A stretch of 64,000 bases of DNA from Pseudomonadota bacterium (lineage in GTDB: Bacteria; Pseudomonadota; Gammaproteobacteria; Burkholderiales; Burkholderiaceae_C): assembly GCA_031119395.1 (NCBI GenBank), contig JAVHYA010000006.1, positions 1-64,000 of the forward strand, in the 5' to 3' direction. The first letter of the stretch is position 1. The number at the start of each line of letters is the position of its first letter. Of the stretch, positions 23,051 through 47,795 are shown one piece after another. A program made the translations under genes and the position numbers. The notes under the pieces were generated by a model. It searched no databases, had not been told where the DNA came from, and saw nothing but the letters and a program-made list of their open reading frames with translations.

Positions 23051-24025
23051 ATGACCACGACGAACACCCGGCGCCGACTGGCGCTCGCCGCCACGGCCGC
23101 GATCGCCCTGGGCGCCGCCCTGCCCGCCGCCGCGCAATCGGACTTCCCCAGCAAGCCCATCGAGCTGCTCGTGCCCTATCAGCCCGGCGGCGGCACCGAC
23201 GCGCTGGCCCGCGCCTTCGCCGACGCCAGCCGCAAGTTCATCCAGCAGAGCATCGTGGTGGTGAACAAGCCCGGCGCCGGCGGCGCCATCGGCTGGCAGG
23301 AGGTCATCAACGCCAAGCCCGACGGCTACAAGCTGGCGGTACTGACCGTCGAGTTGCTGACACTGCCGCACCTGGGCCTGGCCAAGTTCAAGTACGACGA
23401 CTTCCAGCCCATCGCCCAGCTCAATGCCGACCCGGCCGCCATCACCGTGAAGGCCGAGGCGCCGTGGAACACGATCGAGGAGTTCCTGGCCGAGGCGAAG
23501 AAGAAGCCCGACAGCGTGCGCGTGGGCAACTCGGGCAACGGCTCGATCTGGCACCTGGCCGCCGCGGCGCTGGAGGACAAGACCGGCACCAAGTTCAACC
23601 ACATCCCCTTCCAGGGCGCGGCGCCGGCGGTGCTGGCGCTGATGGGCGGCCACATCGAGGCCGTGGCGGTGAGCCCGGCCGAGGTCACGACCTACGTGCA
23701 GGCCGGCAAGCTGAAGACGCTCATGGTGATGGCCGACAAGCGCGTGAAGGGTTTCGAGAAGGTGCCCACCGCCAAGGAGAAGGGCATCGACCTGTCGATC
23801 GGCACCTGGCGCGGCCTGGGCGCGCCGAAGAACACGCCGCCCGAGGTGATGGCGAAGCTGCGCGACCTGGCCGCCAAGACCGCCGCCGAGCCGGCCATGC
23901 ACGAGGTGATGGACAAGCAGAACCTGGGCTACGTCTACACCGACGGCGCCGCCTTCAAGGAGACGCTGGCCAAGGACGACGCGTACTTCAAGGGCCTCAT
24001 CACCAAGCTGAACCTCAAGCCCTGA
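23051..24025 (+). CDS. Bug-family substrate-binding protein
   Basis: FPSKPIELLVPYQPGGGTDALARAFADAS...VVNKPGAGGAIGWQEVINAKPDGYKL. Confidence 0.92.
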   Translation: MTTTNTRRRLALAATAAIALGAALPAAAQSDFPSKPIELLVPYQPGGGTDALARAFADASRKFIQQSIVVVNKPGAGGAIGWQEVINAKPDGYKLAVLTVELLTLPHLGLAKFKYDDFQPIAQLNADPAAITVKAEAPWNTIEEFLAEAKKKPDSVRVGNSGNGSIWHLAAAALEDKTGTKFNHIPFQGAAPAVLALMGGHIEAVAVSPAEVTTYVQAGKLKTLMVMADKRVKGFEKVPTAKEKGIDLSIGTWRGLGAPKNTPPEVMAKLRDLAAKTAAEPAMHEVMDKQNLGYVYTDGAAFKETLAKDDAYFKGLITKLNLKP

Positions 24026-24047
24026 GACGCCTTCCCATCCCGCAGAC

Positions 24048-24112
24048 GCTACGAAAAACAGAGCGGCTCGCGCCCGCCCCACCTGCGTTGCGGGCACTTT
24101 TCATCCACAAGA
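24048..24112 (+). repeat. Intergenic hairpin repeat, probable divergent copy D
   Basis: GCTACGAAAAACAGAGCGGCTCGCGCCCGCCCCACCTGCGTTGCGGGCACTTTTCATCCACAAG; same layout, weaker identity. Confidence 0.4.
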
Positions 24113-24131
24113 CCGAGACAGGAGACTTTCC

Positions 24132-25127
24132 ATGCAACGCCGCCGCCTCTTCCAGCACGCGCTCGCCGCCGTGGCCGCCAGCGCCCTCCCCGCCCTGCCC
24201 GCCCTGGCCCAGGGACAGTGGCCCACGGGCAAGGCCATCACCTACCTCGTGCCCTTCCCGGCCGGCGGCACGACCGACGTGCTGGGCCGCCTGATCGCGC
24301 AGAAGCTCGGCACCGTGCTGGGCACCAGCGTCGTGATCGACAACAAGGGCGGCGCCGGCGGCAGCGTGGGCTCCGAGATCGCCTCGCGCGCCGCGCCCGA
24401 CGGCTACACGCTGCTGGGCGGCACCGTGAGCTCGCACGCCATCAACGTGAGCCTGTACCCCAAGATCGGCTACGACCCGATCACCTCCTTCGCACCCGTC
24501 ACGCTGATCGGCACCAACCCCACCGTGCTGGTCGTGCCGGCCAGCAGTCCGTGGAAGACGCTCAAGGACGTGGTCGAGGCCAGCAAGGCCAAGGCCGGCG
24601 GGCTGTCGTCCGCCTCGGCGGGCATCGGGACCTCTCAGCACCTGTCGCTGGAGCTGCTGGCCTACAAGTCGGGCGTGAAGTTCAACCACGTGCCGTACAA
24701 GGGCAGCGGCCCGGCCATCCAGGACGTGATCGGCGGCCAGGTGGACATGATGTTCGACACCACCGTCGTCGCCGCGCCGCACATCGCCAGCGGCAAGCTG
24801 CGCGCCATCGCCGTCACCTCGCCCCGGCGGCTGGAGTCGCTGCCCGAGGTGCCGACCGTCGCCGAATCGGGCGTGCCCGGCCTGGCCGACTACTCGGTGC
24901 TCTCCTGGCAGGCGATCTTCGTGCCGGCCGGCACGCCGGCGCCGGTGGTCGACCGCCTGCACAAGGAGATCCGCACCATCCTGGCCCAGCCGGAGATGCA
25001 GGAGCGGCTCAGGAGCTTCGGCATGCAGCCGGCCGACATGACGACGGCGGAGATCGCCGCCTTCCAGAAGGCCGAGGTGGCGAAGTGGGCGCAGGTCATC
25101 AAGGCGGCAAACATCAAGGCCGACTGA
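24132..25127 (+). CDS. Bug-family substrate-binding protein
   Basis: WPTGKAITYLVPFPAGGTTDVLGRLIAQKL...IDNKGGAGGSVGSEIASRAAPDGYT. Confidence 0.92.
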   Translation: MQRRRLFQHALAAVAASALPALPALAQGQWPTGKAITYLVPFPAGGTTDVLGRLIAQKLGTVLGTSVVIDNKGGAGGSVGSEIASRAAPDGYTLLGGTVSSHAINVSLYPKIGYDPITSFAPVTLIGTNPTVLVVPASSPWKTLKDVVEASKAKAGGLSSASAGIGTSQHLSLELLAYKSGVKFNHVPYKGSGPAIQDVIGGQVDMMFDTTVVAAPHIASGKLRAIAVTSPRRLESLPEVPTVAESGVPGLADYSVLSWQAIFVPAGTPAPVVDRLHKEIRTILAQPEMQERLRSFGMQPADMTTAEIAAFQKAEVAKWAQVIKAANIKAD

Positions 25128-28400: not shown

Positions 28401-28494
28401 GGTCAGCCAGGGCTACTATTTCGGCCGGCCGGAGCCGCTGTCCGACTTCGAGAGCCGATTCAGGGAGCTGACCTCGGGAGTCGCGCGTGGCTGA
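25444..28494 (+). CDS. Membrane-anchored PAS-(A)GDEF-EAL c-di-GMP turnover protein
   Basis: N-terminal TM, periplasmic sensor, second TM, PAS segments, DTLTGLPNRRLLLHRL...LARLAGDEFVLML (AGDEF), EAL domain GAEALIRWNHP...DDFGTGFSSLSYM. Start trimmed to MTTLPSSRR. Confidence 0.88.
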   Translation: MTTLPSSRRALATLYGVAVLFVLMVVLAAGALSAEMRHRALDNAGGQVTRHVAAVQAALDRSLRRADSLVADMAARADGARLPQSAGPADHDAVGALLRHQVGQDPMVRQLAYVDEDLRIVASSSQRARGQRIDMPADLAHRLRPQPDATLVIDPPSDRRDGASAGIHLVRRLVLADGRELLAVAEIPLAALTKLLEESAEPPRIEVALETADGVLLAGLPERDGRTSRTASVPSERVSADGAPHLAPSRLGGHAAVVAARPAFHRQLLVTASLPQAQVLAGWGRDRLAVAAGAAGFLAMILAAAAFSHVQLRRQRRDRQIILQSKLNLDQALESMVDGLVLLDARDRVLAWNRRFVELFPWAESAIAPNMPFRHLIEMTLVHLRGHGLDISQNAWLAGDLRRTRSVQDEQELALPGGRTILAVKSPMPDGGVVCVFRDTTERRQHIADVVKGKAQLQATLDALPDQLLEVGLDGRCFDFHCPRGVTSGLLVDQPVGLTLAEVLPPDGNTEVMAALREAYVAGRCTGRQFERRASQGTSWFEASVSRKPVGEGADARFIVILRNITETKTATQEIEHLAFYDTLTGLPNRRLLLHRLQGCVDNNARHNRQGALLFLDIDDFKRLNDAHGQAVGDDMLRQVAARLQGVLREGGMLARLAGDEFVLMLENLSHDHALAMVQARALADNALAQMAEPFRLARIEYHSTCSIGVCVFDGSRRSIEDLLKQADIAMYYAKLGGGHAVRVFEPAMKTTVTARAALDSELHVALKKRQFVLHYQPQVNHLGRVVGAEALIRWNHPMRGMVPPAGFIEPAEQTGLIVPIGLWALEEACGQLERWGHDARYAHLTMSVNVSARQFRKDDFAEEVRQVLIRTGCQPSHLKLELTESLLHDQVTETISKMKSLAAIGIRFSMDDFGTGFSSLSYMAQLPLHQLKVDKFFVQGIGQNPKIELIVQTILGMAANLDLEVVAEGVETEAQLAFLQAHGCKVSQGYYFGRPEPLSDFESRFRELTSGVARG

Positions 28495-30286
28495 GCACGG
28501 GGACGCCCCGGTCGGCGGCCAGGGCGCCCTGGCCACGCTGTCGGTCATGGCGCAGATGCTCGACGGCCTGTCGGTGGCGCTGTGCGCCTTCGATGCGCAG
28601 GATCGCACCCTGCTGTGGAACCGCAGCTTCGTCAGGTACTTCCCCGAGCACGCCCGCCACGTGCACGTGGGCGAGCCGTATGCCGACAACCTGCGGCGCT
28701 TCTACCGCGAACGACTCGACCCGAGCGAACAGCCGGCACTGGAACGCTACGTCCGGGCCGGCATCGAGCGCCACCGGACGCAGCAGGCCCCCTTCTCGTT
28801 CGAGCACCGCGGCCGGCATCTGACCGTGTCGTCCCTGAGCCTGCCCGACGGCACGCGCGTACGCATGTGGCGCGAGGACGTGCCGTCGCTGCCGGTACCC
28901 GCCGACCCGGCCGAAGACGCGACCCTCGCGGCCGCGCTGGCGCCCATGGAGGCCTCGCTGCTCGACCATGTGGCCGACGGCGTCAGCGTCATCGACGCCA
29001 GCACCACCATCGTCTGGACCAATGAAGCCTTCCTGGCCATGTACGGCTTCGAAAGCCGCGAGGACGCCCTGGGCCTGACCTTCGCGGCGGCCTTCGCGCA
29101 CACCTGGCAGACGGAGGGCCCGCCGACGCAAGCAGCGCGCATGCACGACGGGCTGAGCGTGCTGCGCGACCAGTTGCGCTTTCCCGGTGCGGCCTTCGAG
29201 CTCGCGCTGCCGGGCGACCGCTGGAGCCGCGTGATCGCCAGGGTCGGCCTGCAGGGCAGGCATTTCCTCGTGCATGTCGACATCACCCTGCTCAAGCGCC
29301 AGCAGCACGAGCTGCTGGCCGCCGAAGCGCGGGCCAGGGAGAGCGAGGCCCAGCTCAATCGGAAATCGAGCATGCTGGAACTCACGCTGGAGCGCATGGA
29401 CCAGGGCCTGATGATGGTGAACGCCGACCAGGTCGTCGAGCTGTGCAACCGGCGCGCCATGGAACTGCTCGATCTGCCCGAAGCCCTGATGGCCTCGCGC
29501 CCGAGCTTCCAGCGCGTGCTGCAGTACCAGGTCGACCGCGGCGAGTTCGACCGCGCCGACCCGGCGGTCATGGGATTCATCAGCGCCGGGGGCATCCTGG
29601 CCCGGTCGCACAGCTACGAGCGCGAGCGCCCCGATGGCCGGGTCATCGAGATCCGGAGCGTGCCCCTCGATGGCGGCGGTCTCGTGCGCACCTACACCGA
29701 CATTTCCGAACGACGGGAGCAGGAGCGGCGCATCCGGTTCCTGGCGCGCCACGACGGGCTGACGGGCCTGATCAACCGCGAGGTCTTCCTCGAGCAGCTC
29801 GGCGAGGCCATGGAAGCGGCCAACGCCATCGCCGGCGGGCCCAGCGTCTGCTTCCTCGATCTCGACCGCTTCAAGAGCATCAACGACTCCCACGGCCACG
29901 CCGTCGGCGACCAGATCCTGATCGAGGCGGCGTCGCGCATGACGTCCGTGGTCCGCGACCGCGGCGTGGTGGCGCGGCTGGGCGGCGACGAATTCGGCGT
30001 CCTGCTGGGCGCGACGGTCAACGCGCGGGCCGTGGCCCAGCAACTCTTCGAGGCCTTCCGCGCCACCGGCTGGCAGCATGCGGGCACCGTGCACGACGTG
30101 GCGGTGTCGATCGGGGTCGCCACCTTCCCGAACGGCGGCAGCGACGCCCATTCGCTGCTGCGCTCCGCCGATGCCGCGATGTACCTGGCCAAGGCCACCG
30201 GCGACGGACGCGGTGGCGTGCGCGTGTTCGGGGCCAGCGCGGCCTCGGCACTCCCGGTCGAGCTGCTGCCGCGGGCCCTTCCCTGA
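28487..30286 (+). CDS. PAS-GGDEF diguanylate cyclase
   Basis: Repeated PAS-type segments (ALCAFDAQDRTLLWNRSFVRYF; GVSVIDASTTIVWTNEAFLAMYGF) then HDGLTGLINREVFL...VARLGGDEFGVLL; overlaps upstream CDS by 8 bp. Confidence 0.87.
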   Translation: MAEHGDAPVGGQGALATLSVMAQMLDGLSVALCAFDAQDRTLLWNRSFVRYFPEHARHVHVGEPYADNLRRFYRERLDPSEQPALERYVRAGIERHRTQQAPFSFEHRGRHLTVSSLSLPDGTRVRMWREDVPSLPVPADPAEDATLAAALAPMEASLLDHVADGVSVIDASTTIVWTNEAFLAMYGFESREDALGLTFAAAFAHTWQTEGPPTQAARMHDGLSVLRDQLRFPGAAFELALPGDRWSRVIARVGLQGRHFLVHVDITLLKRQQHELLAAEARARESEAQLNRKSSMLELTLERMDQGLMMVNADQVVELCNRRAMELLDLPEALMASRPSFQRVLQYQVDRGEFDRADPAVMGFISAGGILARSHSYERERPDGRVIEIRSVPLDGGGLVRTYTDISERREQERRIRFLARHDGLTGLINREVFLEQLGEAMEAANAIAGGPSVCFLDLDRFKSINDSHGHAVGDQILIEAASRMTSVVRDRGVVARLGGDEFGVLLGATVNARAVAQQLFEAFRATGWQHAGTVHDVAVSIGVATFPNGGSDAHSLLRSADAAMYLAKATGDGRGGVRVFGASAASALPVELLPRALP

Positions 30287-30599
30287 ACGCGCCCGACCCG
30301 GGCGCCTGACGCGGGGACGGTCGGGCAGCCCCAGCAGCCTGGCCCGGGTCATCAAGTCCCACGCCCGCGTGTCAGGGGCCTGGACGTGGGTGCAAACCAA
30401 CATCCGGGGGCGTGGGGCTCGGCAAATTTCACATTTGTTAATTATCATTATCCGAAATACACATTTCTTGCGGCGCTGGCCCCCGCTGGCGCGATCCCGG
30501 CGAAATCAACGTGCCATCCCGCCTGTCCAGCCGAACACTGCCTGCCCCCCGTCCGAGCCGGACCGCCCCGCGCACCCGCGCAACCGCCAGGGGCGCCCC

Positions 30600-31232
30600 A
30601 TGATCCATGTCATCACCTGCGACGCGCACGGGATCGTGCGGCGGGGCATCCGGGATGTGCTGTCCGAAGCGGTGGACATCCGCGTGACGGGCGAAGCCAG
30701 CGACGCCGCCGAACTCAAGGACGTCCTGCGCTCCACGCCCTGCGACGTTCTGATCCTCGAACTGGCGCTGCCGGGACGCGGCGGCCTGGACCTGCTGTCC
30801 GGCCTGGCGGACAGCGCTGCCCAGGTGAAGGTGCTGGTCTTCTCGATGCACCCGGAACGCGACTATGCGATCCGCTGCCTGCGCGCAGGCGCATACGGGT
30901 TCCTGAGCAAGACGAGCGACCCGCGGCGGCTGATCGCCGCGGTGCGCTCGGTCGCACGGGGCCAGAAACATGTCACGCGCGAATTGGCCCAGGTGCTGGC
31001 CGACAACATCGCCAAGCCTGCCTCGGACGAAGCGCCGCACCACGCCCTGTCGGACCGCGAGATGCAGACGCTGGTGCGCATCGCCTCGGGCAAGCGCCTG
31101 TCCGAGATCGCCGACGAATTCATGCTCAGTCCGAAGACGGTGAGCGTGTACCGCACGCGCGTGAGGGAGAAGCTCAACCTCCCGACCAACGCGGCGCTGA
31201 CCGCCTACGCCATCCGCAACCACCTCGTCTGA
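30600..31232 (+). CDS. LuxR/NarL-type response regulator with atypical receiver (Glu at phosphoacceptor position)
   Basis: Receiver-like N-terminus MIHVITCDAHGIVRRGIRDVL...CDVLILELALPGRGG...GAYGFLSKTS; C-terminal HTH LSDREMQTLVRIASGKRLSEIADEFMLSPKTVSVYRTRVREKL. Confidence 0.88.
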   Translation: MIHVITCDAHGIVRRGIRDVLSEAVDIRVTGEASDAAELKDVLRSTPCDVLILELALPGRGGLDLLSGLADSAAQVKVLVFSMHPERDYAIRCLRAGAYGFLSKTSDPRRLIAAVRSVARGQKHVTRELAQVLADNIAKPASDEAPHHALSDREMQTLVRIASGKRLSEIADEFMLSPKTVSVYRTRVREKLNLPTNAALTAYAIRNHLV

Positions 31233-31235
31233 GGG

Positions 31236-32006
31236 TCAGCGCGAGCCGGTGAACAGGCCGAGCAGCCGCTCCATCAGGGCGAGCAGCGGCTGCTCCATCA
31301 TCGGCAGCACCAGCGCCATGCCCGCCAGGCCGCTGGTCAGCGTGACCGGGAAGCCGATGGCGTAGATGTTCATCTGCGGCGCCACCCGCGAGATGACCCC
31401 CATCACCAGGTTGACGAACAGCAGCAGCGCAATCATCGGCAACGCGATCCACAGCGCGCTGGCGAACAGCTCCGCGCCCAGTTCGTGCAGCCGCAACCGC
31501 GCAAAGGCATCGAGCACCCCGACGCCGACCGGGAAGACCTCGAAGCTCTTGATGACGGCCATCAGCACCGTCAGGTGGCCGTTGATCACGATGAAGACGA
31601 GCATCGCGACATTGCCGAAGAAGCGGGAGACGGCGCTGGCCTGGGCGTTGCTGATCGGGTCGAAGAACGACGCGAAGTTCAGCCCCATCTGCAGTCCGAC
31701 CAGTTCGCCGGCGAACTCGACGGCGGCGAAGACCAGCCGTGCCGTGAAGCCGAGCGCCAGGCCGATGGCCACCTGCTGCACCAGCGCACCCAGGGCGAGC
31801 GCGTTGTCGAACGCAATGACGGGCTGGGCCCCGAGCGTGGCCTGCGCGCCGAGCGCGACCACGGCCGCCAGGCCGATGCGCGCGCGCACCGGGATGGCCC
31901 GCGAAGAGAAGACCGGTGCGGCGGTGAACAGCCCGAGCACCCGCAGGAAGGGCCACAGCCAGGGCGTGATCCACGCGGCCAGCTGCGCTTCGTCGAAGGT
32001 CAGCAC
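31236..32006 (-). CDS. fliR: Flagellar biosynthetic protein FliR
   Basis: FLRVLGLFTAAPVFSSRAIPVRARIGLA...GLQMGLNFASFFDP...; GTG start proposed (VLTFDEAQL); located after fliQ. Confidence 0.9.
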   Translation of the reverse strand: MLTFDEAQLAAWITPWLWPFLRVLGLFTAAPVFSSRAIPVRARIGLAAVVALGAQATLGAQPVIAFDNALALGALVQQVAIGLALGFTARLVFAAVEFAGELVGLQMGLNFASFFDPISNAQASAVSRFFGNVAMLVFIVINGHLTVLMAVIKSFEVFPVGVGVLDAFARLRLHELGAELFASALWIALPMIALLLFVNLVMGVISRVAPQMNIYAIGFPVTLTSGLAGMALVLPMMEQPLLALMERLLGLFTGSR

Positions 32007-32020
32007 GTCGCGGGCCGGGA

Positions 32021-32290
32021 CTAGGCGACCATCCGCGGGATCGACTCGATCATGCGACGCAGGTAGTCCACCAGCGTGGACAGCATCCACGGCCCGGCGA
32101 TCGCGAAGACCACCACGGCCGCGATCAGCTTGGGCACGAAGGCCAGCGTCGCCTCGTTGATCTGGGTGACCGCCTGGAAGATGCTCACGACCAGCCCGAC
32201 GACCAGCACCGCCAGCAGCACCGGCAGGGAGACCATCAGCAGCATGACCAGGGCATCGCGCCCCATGGAAAGAACAGTCTGCGCGTCCAT
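32021..32290 (-). CDS. fliQ: Flagellar biosynthetic protein FliQ
   Basis: 89 aa, two TM; LPVLLAVLVVGLVVSIFQAVTQINEATLAFVPKLIAA. Confidence 0.94.
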   Translation of the reverse strand: MDAQTVLSMGRDALVMLLMVSLPVLLAVLVVGLVVSIFQAVTQINEATLAFVPKLIAAVVVFAIAGPWMLSTLVDYLRRMIESIPRMVA

Positions 32291-46710: not shown

Positions 46711-46898
46711 AACTCGCACAACGAGGTCTTTTGTTTTCTAAATCGTCTAGTTGAACACTTTGGTTGTAGGCAAACAGCCCGCGGCGATGTCAGACAGGGA
46801 GACACAGGGAACAGCGAAGTGCCTATTAAAGTTTTTGTTACGAAATACACAATTTGCTCATCACACCGGGTCGCCGACCCCAGCGGATGTAACCGAAT

Positions 46899-47231
46899 AT
46901 GACGAGCGAACAGATCCTGGCCGAGATCAAAGAGGCCAACCTCACCTACCTCATGCTGGCCCAGAGCCTCATCCGCAAGGACAAGCCCCAGGCCCTGTTC
47001 CGTCTGGGCATTTCCGAGGAATCGGCCGACCTGCTGGAAACGCTGTCGCCTGCGCAGGTGATGAAGCTGGCGTCGGGCAACATGCTGCTGTGCCGATTCC
47101 GCGCAGACGACAACATGGTCTGGAGCCTCCTGACCAACCACAACCTGCAGGGGCGCACTGCCAACGACGCGACCACCCGGCTGCACGCCAACATCGTGAT
47201 GTCGGGACGCTTCGCCGACGCGGCGTCCTGA
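46899..47231 (+). CDS. flhD: Flagellar transcriptional activator FlhD
   Basis: EIKEANLTYLMLAQSLIRKDKPQALFRLGISEESADLLETLSPAQVMKLASGNMLLCRFR. Confidence 0.95.
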   Translation: MTSEQILAEIKEANLTYLMLAQSLIRKDKPQALFRLGISEESADLLETLSPAQVMKLASGNMLLCRFRADDNMVWSLLTNHNLQGRTANDATTRLHANIVMSGRFADAAS

Positions 47232-47255: not shown

Positions 47256-47795
47256 ATGGCCACGAACAAGAGCGTCCTGAACGAATCGCGCCAGATCGAC
47301 CGGGCCATCAGCCTGATCGAGATGGGCGCACGCCTGCAGGTCCTGGAGAGCGAGACCGAGCTGTCCTACGAACGGCTGCTGCGCCTGTACAAGGAGGTGG
47401 CTGGCCGCTCGCCGTCCAAGGGCCAGCTGCCGTTCTCGACCGACTGGTTCCTCACGTGGCAGCCCAACATCCATGCCTCGTTGTTCCAGAACATCTACAC
47501 CTACCTGTCCAAGACCAGTTCGCTCGAGAGCATCGACCTGTTGATCAAGGCCTATCAGCTCTACACCGAGCAGGTGGGCGCCTGCGCGCTCGAGCCGCTG
47601 CTGTCGATCACCCGTGCCTGGCGTCTCACGCGCTTCGTGGACAACGACATGCTGCACATGACGGCCTGCAGTTGCTGCGGCGGCCACTTCATCACCGAGC
47701 CGTACGAGAACGCCCGCCACTTCGTCTGCGGCCTGTGCGAGCCGCCGGCCCGGGCCGGCAAGGGCGCGGGCACGGGCGGGATTCAGCTGCAGTGA
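47256..47795 (+). CDS. flhC: Flagellar transcriptional activator FlhC
   Basis: IDRAISLIEMGARLQVLESETELSYERLLRLYKEVAGRSPSKGQLPFSTDWF; zinc cysteines CSCCGGHF...CGLC. Confidence 0.96.
   Translation: MATNKSVLNESRQIDRAISLIEMGARLQVLESETELSYERLLRLYKEVAGRSPSKGQLPFSTDWFLTWQPNIHASLFQNIYTYLSKTSSLESIDLLIKAYQLYTEQVGACALEPLLSITRAWRLTRFVDNDMLHMTACSCCGGHFITEPYENARHFVCGLCEPPARAGKGAGTGGIQLQ

What the first reader, a model, noticed from the sequence alone, without database searches (positions are those of the whole stretch)
30600..31232. LuxR-type response regulator with Glu in place of the phosphoacceptor Asp
In CDVLILELALPGRGG the residue aligned with the conserved Asp (position 54, codon GAA at 30759-30761) is Glu, and the acidic pocket is reduced to CD (TCDAHG) instead of a pair of acids. 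The Lys (FLSKTS) and the HTH domain are intact. D-to-E at this site is known to mimic phosphorylation in some regulators. Inference: a constitutive or phosphorylation-independent regulator, placed between c-di-GMP genes and the flagellar locus with no adjacent histidine kinase.
Basis: partly seen in the sequence, partly recalled or inferred. Interest (0 to 1): 0.6.

Follow-up and report, generated by a model that had tools for sequence, protein, structure and literature searches.

The report
Kinase-less flagellar regulator with pseudo-receiver domain
A switch protein that in related bacteria turns on flagellum genes when a partner enzyme tags it has, in this genus, lost both the partner and the tagging site, yet it is still kept and conserved wherever there are flagella.

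Summary
It is neither strain-specific nor an error: all 12 genomes of the genus that carry it lack the Asp (7 Glu, 5 Ala), whereas 130 of 130 orthologues read from other genera of the family keep D8-D9-D54-K104. By synteny it is the orthologue of AcrR, the Acidovorax citrulli activator of flagellar genes including flhDC. Elsewhere in the family the gene follows a REC-HisKA_3 kinase, usually with a 4-nt overlap; 167 of 170 genomes with the regulator have that kinase, and the three without it are this genus. So the kinase was lost and the receiver became a pseudo-receiver, under continued purifying selection. In the genus the gene is present in exactly the 12 flagellated genomes and absent from the 3 aflagellate ones. 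A UvrY/GacA-like dyad upstream of flhD in 29 of 29 Asp-bearing relatives is altered here. Best reading: phosphorylation-independent flhDC regulator, probably controlled through its own expression. Glu as a permanent "on" mimic is possible, but Ala in sister species argues it is not essential. Known kind, unusually clear history.

The parts
30600..31232 (+). AcrR-lineage response regulator, 210 aa, receiver + GerE/LuxR HTH
   Evidence: orthologues beside fliR; tree
30609..30947 (+). receiver (Response_reg, PF00072) domain, residues 4-116, degenerate active site
   Evidence: E 9.7e-21; residue table
30621..30626 (+). pocket acids D8 (kept) and A9 (second acid lost)
30759..30761 (+). E54 (GAA), the former phosphoacceptor Asp; GAA or GAG in the other Xenophilus
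30843..30845 (+). S82, conserved Ser/Thr of the active site, kept
30900..30911 (+). F101 (K-3, invariant Tyr elsewhere) to K104 (conserved Lys, kept)
31044..31208 (+). GerE/LuxR DNA-binding domain, residues 149-203
   Evidence: E 3.1e-13
30435..30463 (+). conserved AT-rich element TTGTTAATTATCATTATCCGAAATACACA, probable promoter/operator of the now monocistronic gene
   Evidence: nearly invariant in four Xenophilus assemblies; related element, other strand, in Pseudacidovorax
31236..32090 (-). fliR, convergent neighbour; the same adjacency as in most Asp-bearing orthologues
28487..30286 (+). PAS-GGDEF gene in the place where relatives have the cognate kinase
46765..46783 (+). TGTAGGCAAACAGCCCGCG, 134 bp upstream of flhD: left arm of the UvrY-like dyad kept, right arm changed
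46899..47231 (+). flhD
47256..47795 (+). flhC (PF05280)

Best explanation
The gene is the Xenophilus orthologue of AcrR, the NarL/GacA-type activator of flhDC and the flagellar regulon of Comamonadaceae. In the ancestor of Xenophilus/Pseudacidovorax the REC-HisKA_3 kinase gene that normally precedes and overlaps it was lost (shown by comparison). The receiver then lost its phosphoacceptor (D54 to E, later E to A in most Pseudacidovorax) and its second metal-binding acid (shown; the order of kinase loss and Asp loss is inferred). The protein stayed under purifying selection and stays tied to possession of flagella (shown). It therefore most likely works without phosphorylation, as an intrinsically active or expression-controlled DNA-binding protein at flhDC (inferred). 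Its input has probably moved to its own promoter, which carries a conserved AT-rich element, and its flhD operator has been remodelled from a symmetrical dyad to one that keeps only the left arm (sequence shown, function inferred). Glu54 may have helped as a partial phosphomimic when the kinase was lost, but is no longer essential in the sister lineage.
For: Orthology: 130 family members read with CDD, D54 and K104; most sit convergent with fliR; the degenerate clade is monophyletic, 100/100. AcrR of A. citrulli has 209 aa, a receiver + HTH and lies 3' of fliRQP; its mutant is aflagellate and flhDC and about 30 flagellar genes fall (PMC7060138). Kinase: directly upstream of the regulator in relatives, 4-nt overlap in 39 of 50; found in 167 of 170 family genomes with the regulator, the 3 exceptions being the sampled members of this genus; no orthologue in any of 15 genus genomes, best hit 38% over the kinase half only. 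Selection: window versus its nearest relative 21 synonymous and 0 nonsynonymous changes, dN/dS 0.04-0.2 within Xenophilus. Flagellar link: in the genus, regulator, fliR and flhC are present in the same 12 genomes and absent from the same 3; in the family 168 of 170 genomes with it have fliG against 22 of 81 without it. Operator: TGTMRG-N7-CYKACA upstream of flhD in 29/29 Asp-bearing genomes, 25 perfect; only 0-3 perfect sites in each of 9 whole genomes; altered in the genus at the same position.
Against: No experiment shows that this protein binds DNA or acts on flhDC. The identity with AcrR rests on synteny, length and domain make-up; the Aave_4382 sequence was not compared. The flhD dyad is inferred to be the AcrR site, and the canonical form is missing from this window, so the regulator may have changed targets. 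X. arseniciresistens lacks the AT-rich element upstream of its gene. The derived operator pattern was described after seeing the sequences.
Confidence: 0.66

Rival explanations
1. Glu54 acts as a permanent phospho-Asp mimic, pairing with S82 and K104 and locking the receiver in the active, dimerising state, so the flagellar regulon is constitutively switched on.
For: Glu is conserved in all Xenophilus with synonymous codon changes (GAA/GAG), and S82 and K104 are kept. Glu is the commonest replacement in aspartate-less receivers (26%) and activates some receivers (PMC4395418). The tree makes Glu the ancestral state of the genus.
Against: Ala in five sister genomes that keep the gene. D9 is lost too. 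Often D-to-E alone does not activate, and replacing the Glu of ChxR by Asp or Ala did not abolish its DNA binding.
Confidence: 0.3
2. The receiver became a sensor of another input (ligand, protein partner or c-di-GMP), which replaces phosphorylation.
For: REC is under purifying selection in both subclades, with many clade-specific changes on a long stem branch of 1.05. GGDEF genes lie beside it in this window. FleQ and VpsT are pseudo-receiver proteins that respond to c-di-GMP.
Against: GGDEF neighbours are not conserved in the genus. The protein has no Trp, so the VpsT W[FLM][TS]R motif (own knowledge) is absent. No candidate ligand site was found.
Confidence: 0.22
3. The gene is a decaying remnant on its way to loss after its kinase disappeared.
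For: Kinase gone, active site eroding step by step (D9 to E, A or P; D54 to E or A), long stem branch, canonical flhD dyad gone.
Against: Intact ORF in 12 of 12 flagellated genomes, dN/dS 0.04-0.2 and zero dN in the HTH among close Xenophilus, kept even where it was moved to another locus.
Confidence: 0.07
4. Sequencing error or strain-specific mutation at the codon.
For: None found.
Against: Independent assemblies of several Xenophilus species all read Glu, with two different codons; sister species read Ala.
Confidence: 0.01
5. Another residue, or Glu54 itself, is phosphorylated by a non-cognate kinase.
For: S82 and K104 are kept; paralogous HisKA_3 kinases exist in the genome.
Against: No new acid near the end of beta-3 in the clade; D9 is lost; those kinases belong to other systems such as the one beside the regulator paralogue on contig 44.
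Confidence: 0.04

Closest known systems
AcrR of Acidovorax citrulli (Aave_4382; PMC7060138)
   Same: Length (209 against 210 aa), receiver + LuxR-type HTH, convergent with fliRQP; orthologous by synteny; regulator of flhDC and flagellar genes
   Different: Asp-bearing relatives carry the kinase upstream and D9/D54; here kinase, D9 and D54 are lost and the flhD dyad is altered
CosR of thermotolerant Campylobacter (PMC3938529)
   Same: Same evolutionary pattern: orthologues with Asp have a linked kinase (CosS), those without Asp have lost it; thought to work without phosphorylation
   Different: OmpR family, Asn or Ser at the site, different regulon
Aspartate-less receivers / pseudo-receivers (ChxR, RitR, HP1043, FleQ; PMC4395418, PMC12632262)
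   Same: Receiver fold without the acceptor; Glu the commonest replacement; first acid kept and second lost; orphan gene
   Different: Here the Asp-bearing, kinase-linked ancestor state is preserved in sister genera, and Glu and Ala occur in sister species
UvrY/SirA/GacA response regulators
   Same: Nearest NCBIfam model (164.9 bits); relatives' flhD dyad TGTMRG-N7-CYKACA resembles TGTAAG-N6-CTTACA (PMC4682653)
   Different: Below the equivalog cut-off (280 bits); no phosphoacceptor; dyad one base longer; target is flhDC rather than csr/rsm RNA genes

Membership tests
Aspartate-less receiver / pseudo-receiver | recognised as a receiver domain (PF00072) | tested here: met
   74.5 bits against cut-off 30.2
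Aspartate-less receiver / pseudo-receiver | phosphoacceptor Asp replaced | tested here: met
   E54; Asp in 130/130 orthologues elsewhere
Aspartate-less receiver / pseudo-receiver | activity without phosphorylation | not testable with these tools
   needs phosphotransfer and DNA-binding assays
AcrR orthologue (Comamonadaceae flagellar regulator) | convergent neighbour of fliR | tested here: met
   PMC7060138
AcrR orthologue (Comamonadaceae flagellar regulator) | receiver + GerE, about 209 aa, single clade with the fliR-linked regulators | tested here: met
   the Aave_4382 sequence itself was not compared
AcrR orthologue (Comamonadaceae flagellar regulator) | control of flhDC | not testable with these tools
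   operator comparison only
Canonical two-component response regulator | D-D pair, acceptor Asp, linked histidine kinase | tested here: not met
UvrY/SirA/GacA equivalog | NCBIfam NF007018 curated cut-off | tested here: not met
   164.9 against 280 bits
VpsT-type c-di-GMP-binding LuxR regulator | W[FLM][TS]R motif in the receiver | tested here: not met
   no Trp in the protein; motif from own knowledge

The most novel reading that the evidence does not exclude
One genus has turned a kinase-gated master switch of flagellar synthesis into a phosphorylation-independent one in traceable steps: kinase deletion, D54 to E (a mimic that kept the system on), E to A once other changes made Glu dispensable, and remodelling of the flhD operator from a symmetrical UvrY-like dyad to an asymmetric site, with control moved to the regulator's own promoter.
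Probability: 0.35. Interest if true: 0.65.

Novelty: new member of a known kind. Interest (0 to 1): 0.5.

Why it matters
How pseudo-receivers are switched on and off in bacteria is described as unknown (PMC12632262). Here kinase-paired Asp orthologues, Glu orthologues and Ala orthologues of one flagellar regulator exist side by side in one family, with a recognisable target promoter. That makes it directly testable whether Glu is a working mimic or a stepping stone, and how a regulon survives the loss of its kinase.

Tried and rejected
Kinase remnant near the gene: weak chance-level hits only in the window and relatives. Kinase elsewhere in the genus: only paralogous kinases, 38% over the kinase half. 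Dyad upstream of the kinase-regulator operon (autoregulation): not found in 50 loci. Genomes with flagella but apparently no regulator as counter-examples: in G137 the contig ends inside fliR, just before the gene; G164 is 70% complete; G123, G052, G246 and G168 have distant flhD and no dyad, so they are weak controls. Fur-box reading of the AT-rich element: only a partial match by eye, not pursued. Structure prediction was not run: a monomer model would not tell active from inactive state.

Full report
Observation. The ORF at 30600-31232 (+) encodes 210 aa with a receiver domain (PF00072, residues 4-116) and a GerE/LuxR HTH (PF00196, residues 149-203). Codon 54 (30759-30761) is GAA, Glu. The pocket is D8-A9, not C7-D8: Cys7 and Asp8 are invariant in Asp-bearing orthologues, and the second acid, D9, is what is lost. 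S82 and K104 are kept; the K-3 aromatic is Phe instead of an invariant Tyr.

Not an error, but lineage-specific. Relatives in genome collections and in the genus show Glu at 54 in all Xenophilus (codons GAA and GAG) and in one Pseudacidovorax (NS331), and Ala in five other Pseudacidovorax genomes. Position 9 is Ala, Glu or Pro. I read 130 orthologues from other genera of the family: 130/130 have D8, D9, D54 and K104, and position 82 is Ser in 129 and Thr in 1. A maximum-likelihood tree places the degenerate proteins in one clade (100/100) on a long stem of 1.05. NS331 (Glu) is sister to the Ala group, so D to E followed by E to A is the shortest history. The tree tool warned that this clade sits on a long branch, so its exact sister group is uncertain.

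What it is. Asp-bearing orthologues mostly lie convergent with fliR, as in the window. Acidovorax citrulli AcrR (Aave_4382, 209 aa, receiver + HTH) lies 3' of fliRQP on the opposite strand. Its mutant has no flagella, and flhDC and about 30 flagellar genes fall (PMC7060138). The window gene is therefore very probably the AcrR orthologue; I could not compare the A. citrulli sequence directly.

The missing kinase. In relatives the gene directly follows a REC-HisKA_3-HATPase kinase, with a 4-nt overlap in 39 of 50 loci. In a sample of 251 family genomes, 170 carry the regulator (E < 1e-57) and 167 of these carry the kinase (E <= 1e-50); the three without it are exactly the three members of this genus in the sample. 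No kinase orthologue occurs in any of 15 genus genomes, and no remnant is seen at the locus. In the window its place is taken by a PAS-GGDEF gene; in X. arseniciresistens by unrelated genes; in Pseudacidovorax the regulator has moved away from fliR.

Still functional, still flagellar. The window protein and its ALPHA2B counterpart differ by 21 synonymous and no nonsynonymous changes; dN/dS within Xenophilus is 0.04-0.2. In the genus the regulator, fliR and flhC are present in the same 12 genomes and absent from the same 3. In the family 168 of 170 genomes with the regulator have fliG, against 22 of 81 without it. These counts are not corrected for relatedness.

A candidate operator. Upstream of flhD in 29 of 29 Asp-bearing genomes there is a 19-bp dyad TGTMRG-N7-CYKACA (25 perfect, 4 with one mismatch, nearly all 124-184 bp before the start), which shuffles almost never give. 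Whole genomes hold only 0-3 perfect copies; in G089 the only one is at flhD. It resembles the UvrY site TGTAAG-N6-CTTACA, whose binding in vivo needs phosphorylation (PMC4682653), and the window protein's nearest NCBIfam model is UvrY/SirA/GacA, below cut-off. That it is the AcrR site is inference. In this genus the dyad is altered: X. arseniciresistens keeps 11 of 12 positions, while the other Xenophilus keep TGTAGG at the same place with a changed right arm (window 46765-46783). Four of the six Pseudacidovorax promoters fit a similar derived form exactly, and all six lack the canonical dyad. The derived pattern was written down after seeing the sequences.

A new promoter? The gene is now monocistronic. 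An AT-rich element at 30435-30463 is nearly invariant in four Xenophilus assemblies, and a related element on the other strand lies upstream of the relocated gene in Pseudacidovorax, but not in X. arseniciresistens. CGAAATACACA occurs in the window only here and in the flhD promoter (30453 and 46841).

Mechanism. Shown: loss of kinase, acceptor and second acid; retention under selection; tie to flagella. Inferred: the protein acts at flhDC without phosphorylation, set by its abundance. The phosphomimic idea fits Xenophilus but not the Ala sisters, unless Glu was needed only early.

Comparison. It meets the definition of an aspartate-less receiver (PMC4395418, PMC12632262). Glu is the commonest replacement, the second acid is commonly lost, and characterised atypical regulators are mostly orphans. 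Loss of kinase together with loss of Asp has a precedent in CosR/CosS (PMC3938529). It is therefore a new member of a known kind. The added value is the preserved ancestral state, the Glu and Ala descendants and a nameable target promoter.

Noticed in passing
window 30435-30463 and 46841-46851: AT-rich element upstream of the regulator in GC-rich DNA, nearly invariant in four Xenophilus assemblies; its CGAAATACACA part recurs only in the flhD promoter. Possible shared promoter or operator.
   Followed up: partly
L244-L273, L275 (flhD upstream regions): UvrY/GacA-like dyad TGTMRG-N7-CYKACA before flhD across Comamonadaceae with the Asp-bearing regulator, nearly unique in whole genomes. I know of no report of it.
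   Followed up: partly
genomes G253, G258, G262 (same genus): Three genomes of the genus lack fliR, flhC and this regulator together, which suggests one or more losses of motility.
   Followed up: partly
L072, -1154 to +3 relative to the regulator: The cognate kinase of the family has an N-terminal receiver domain and no membrane-sensor domain in Pfam, and often lies beside cheA/cheY-type genes; a link between chemotaxis and flhDC control is possible.
   Followed up: no
window 23051-25127: Two tandem tripartite-tricarboxylate-type periplasmic binding protein genes (named from sequence by eye) upstream of the GGDEF genes.
   Followed up: no
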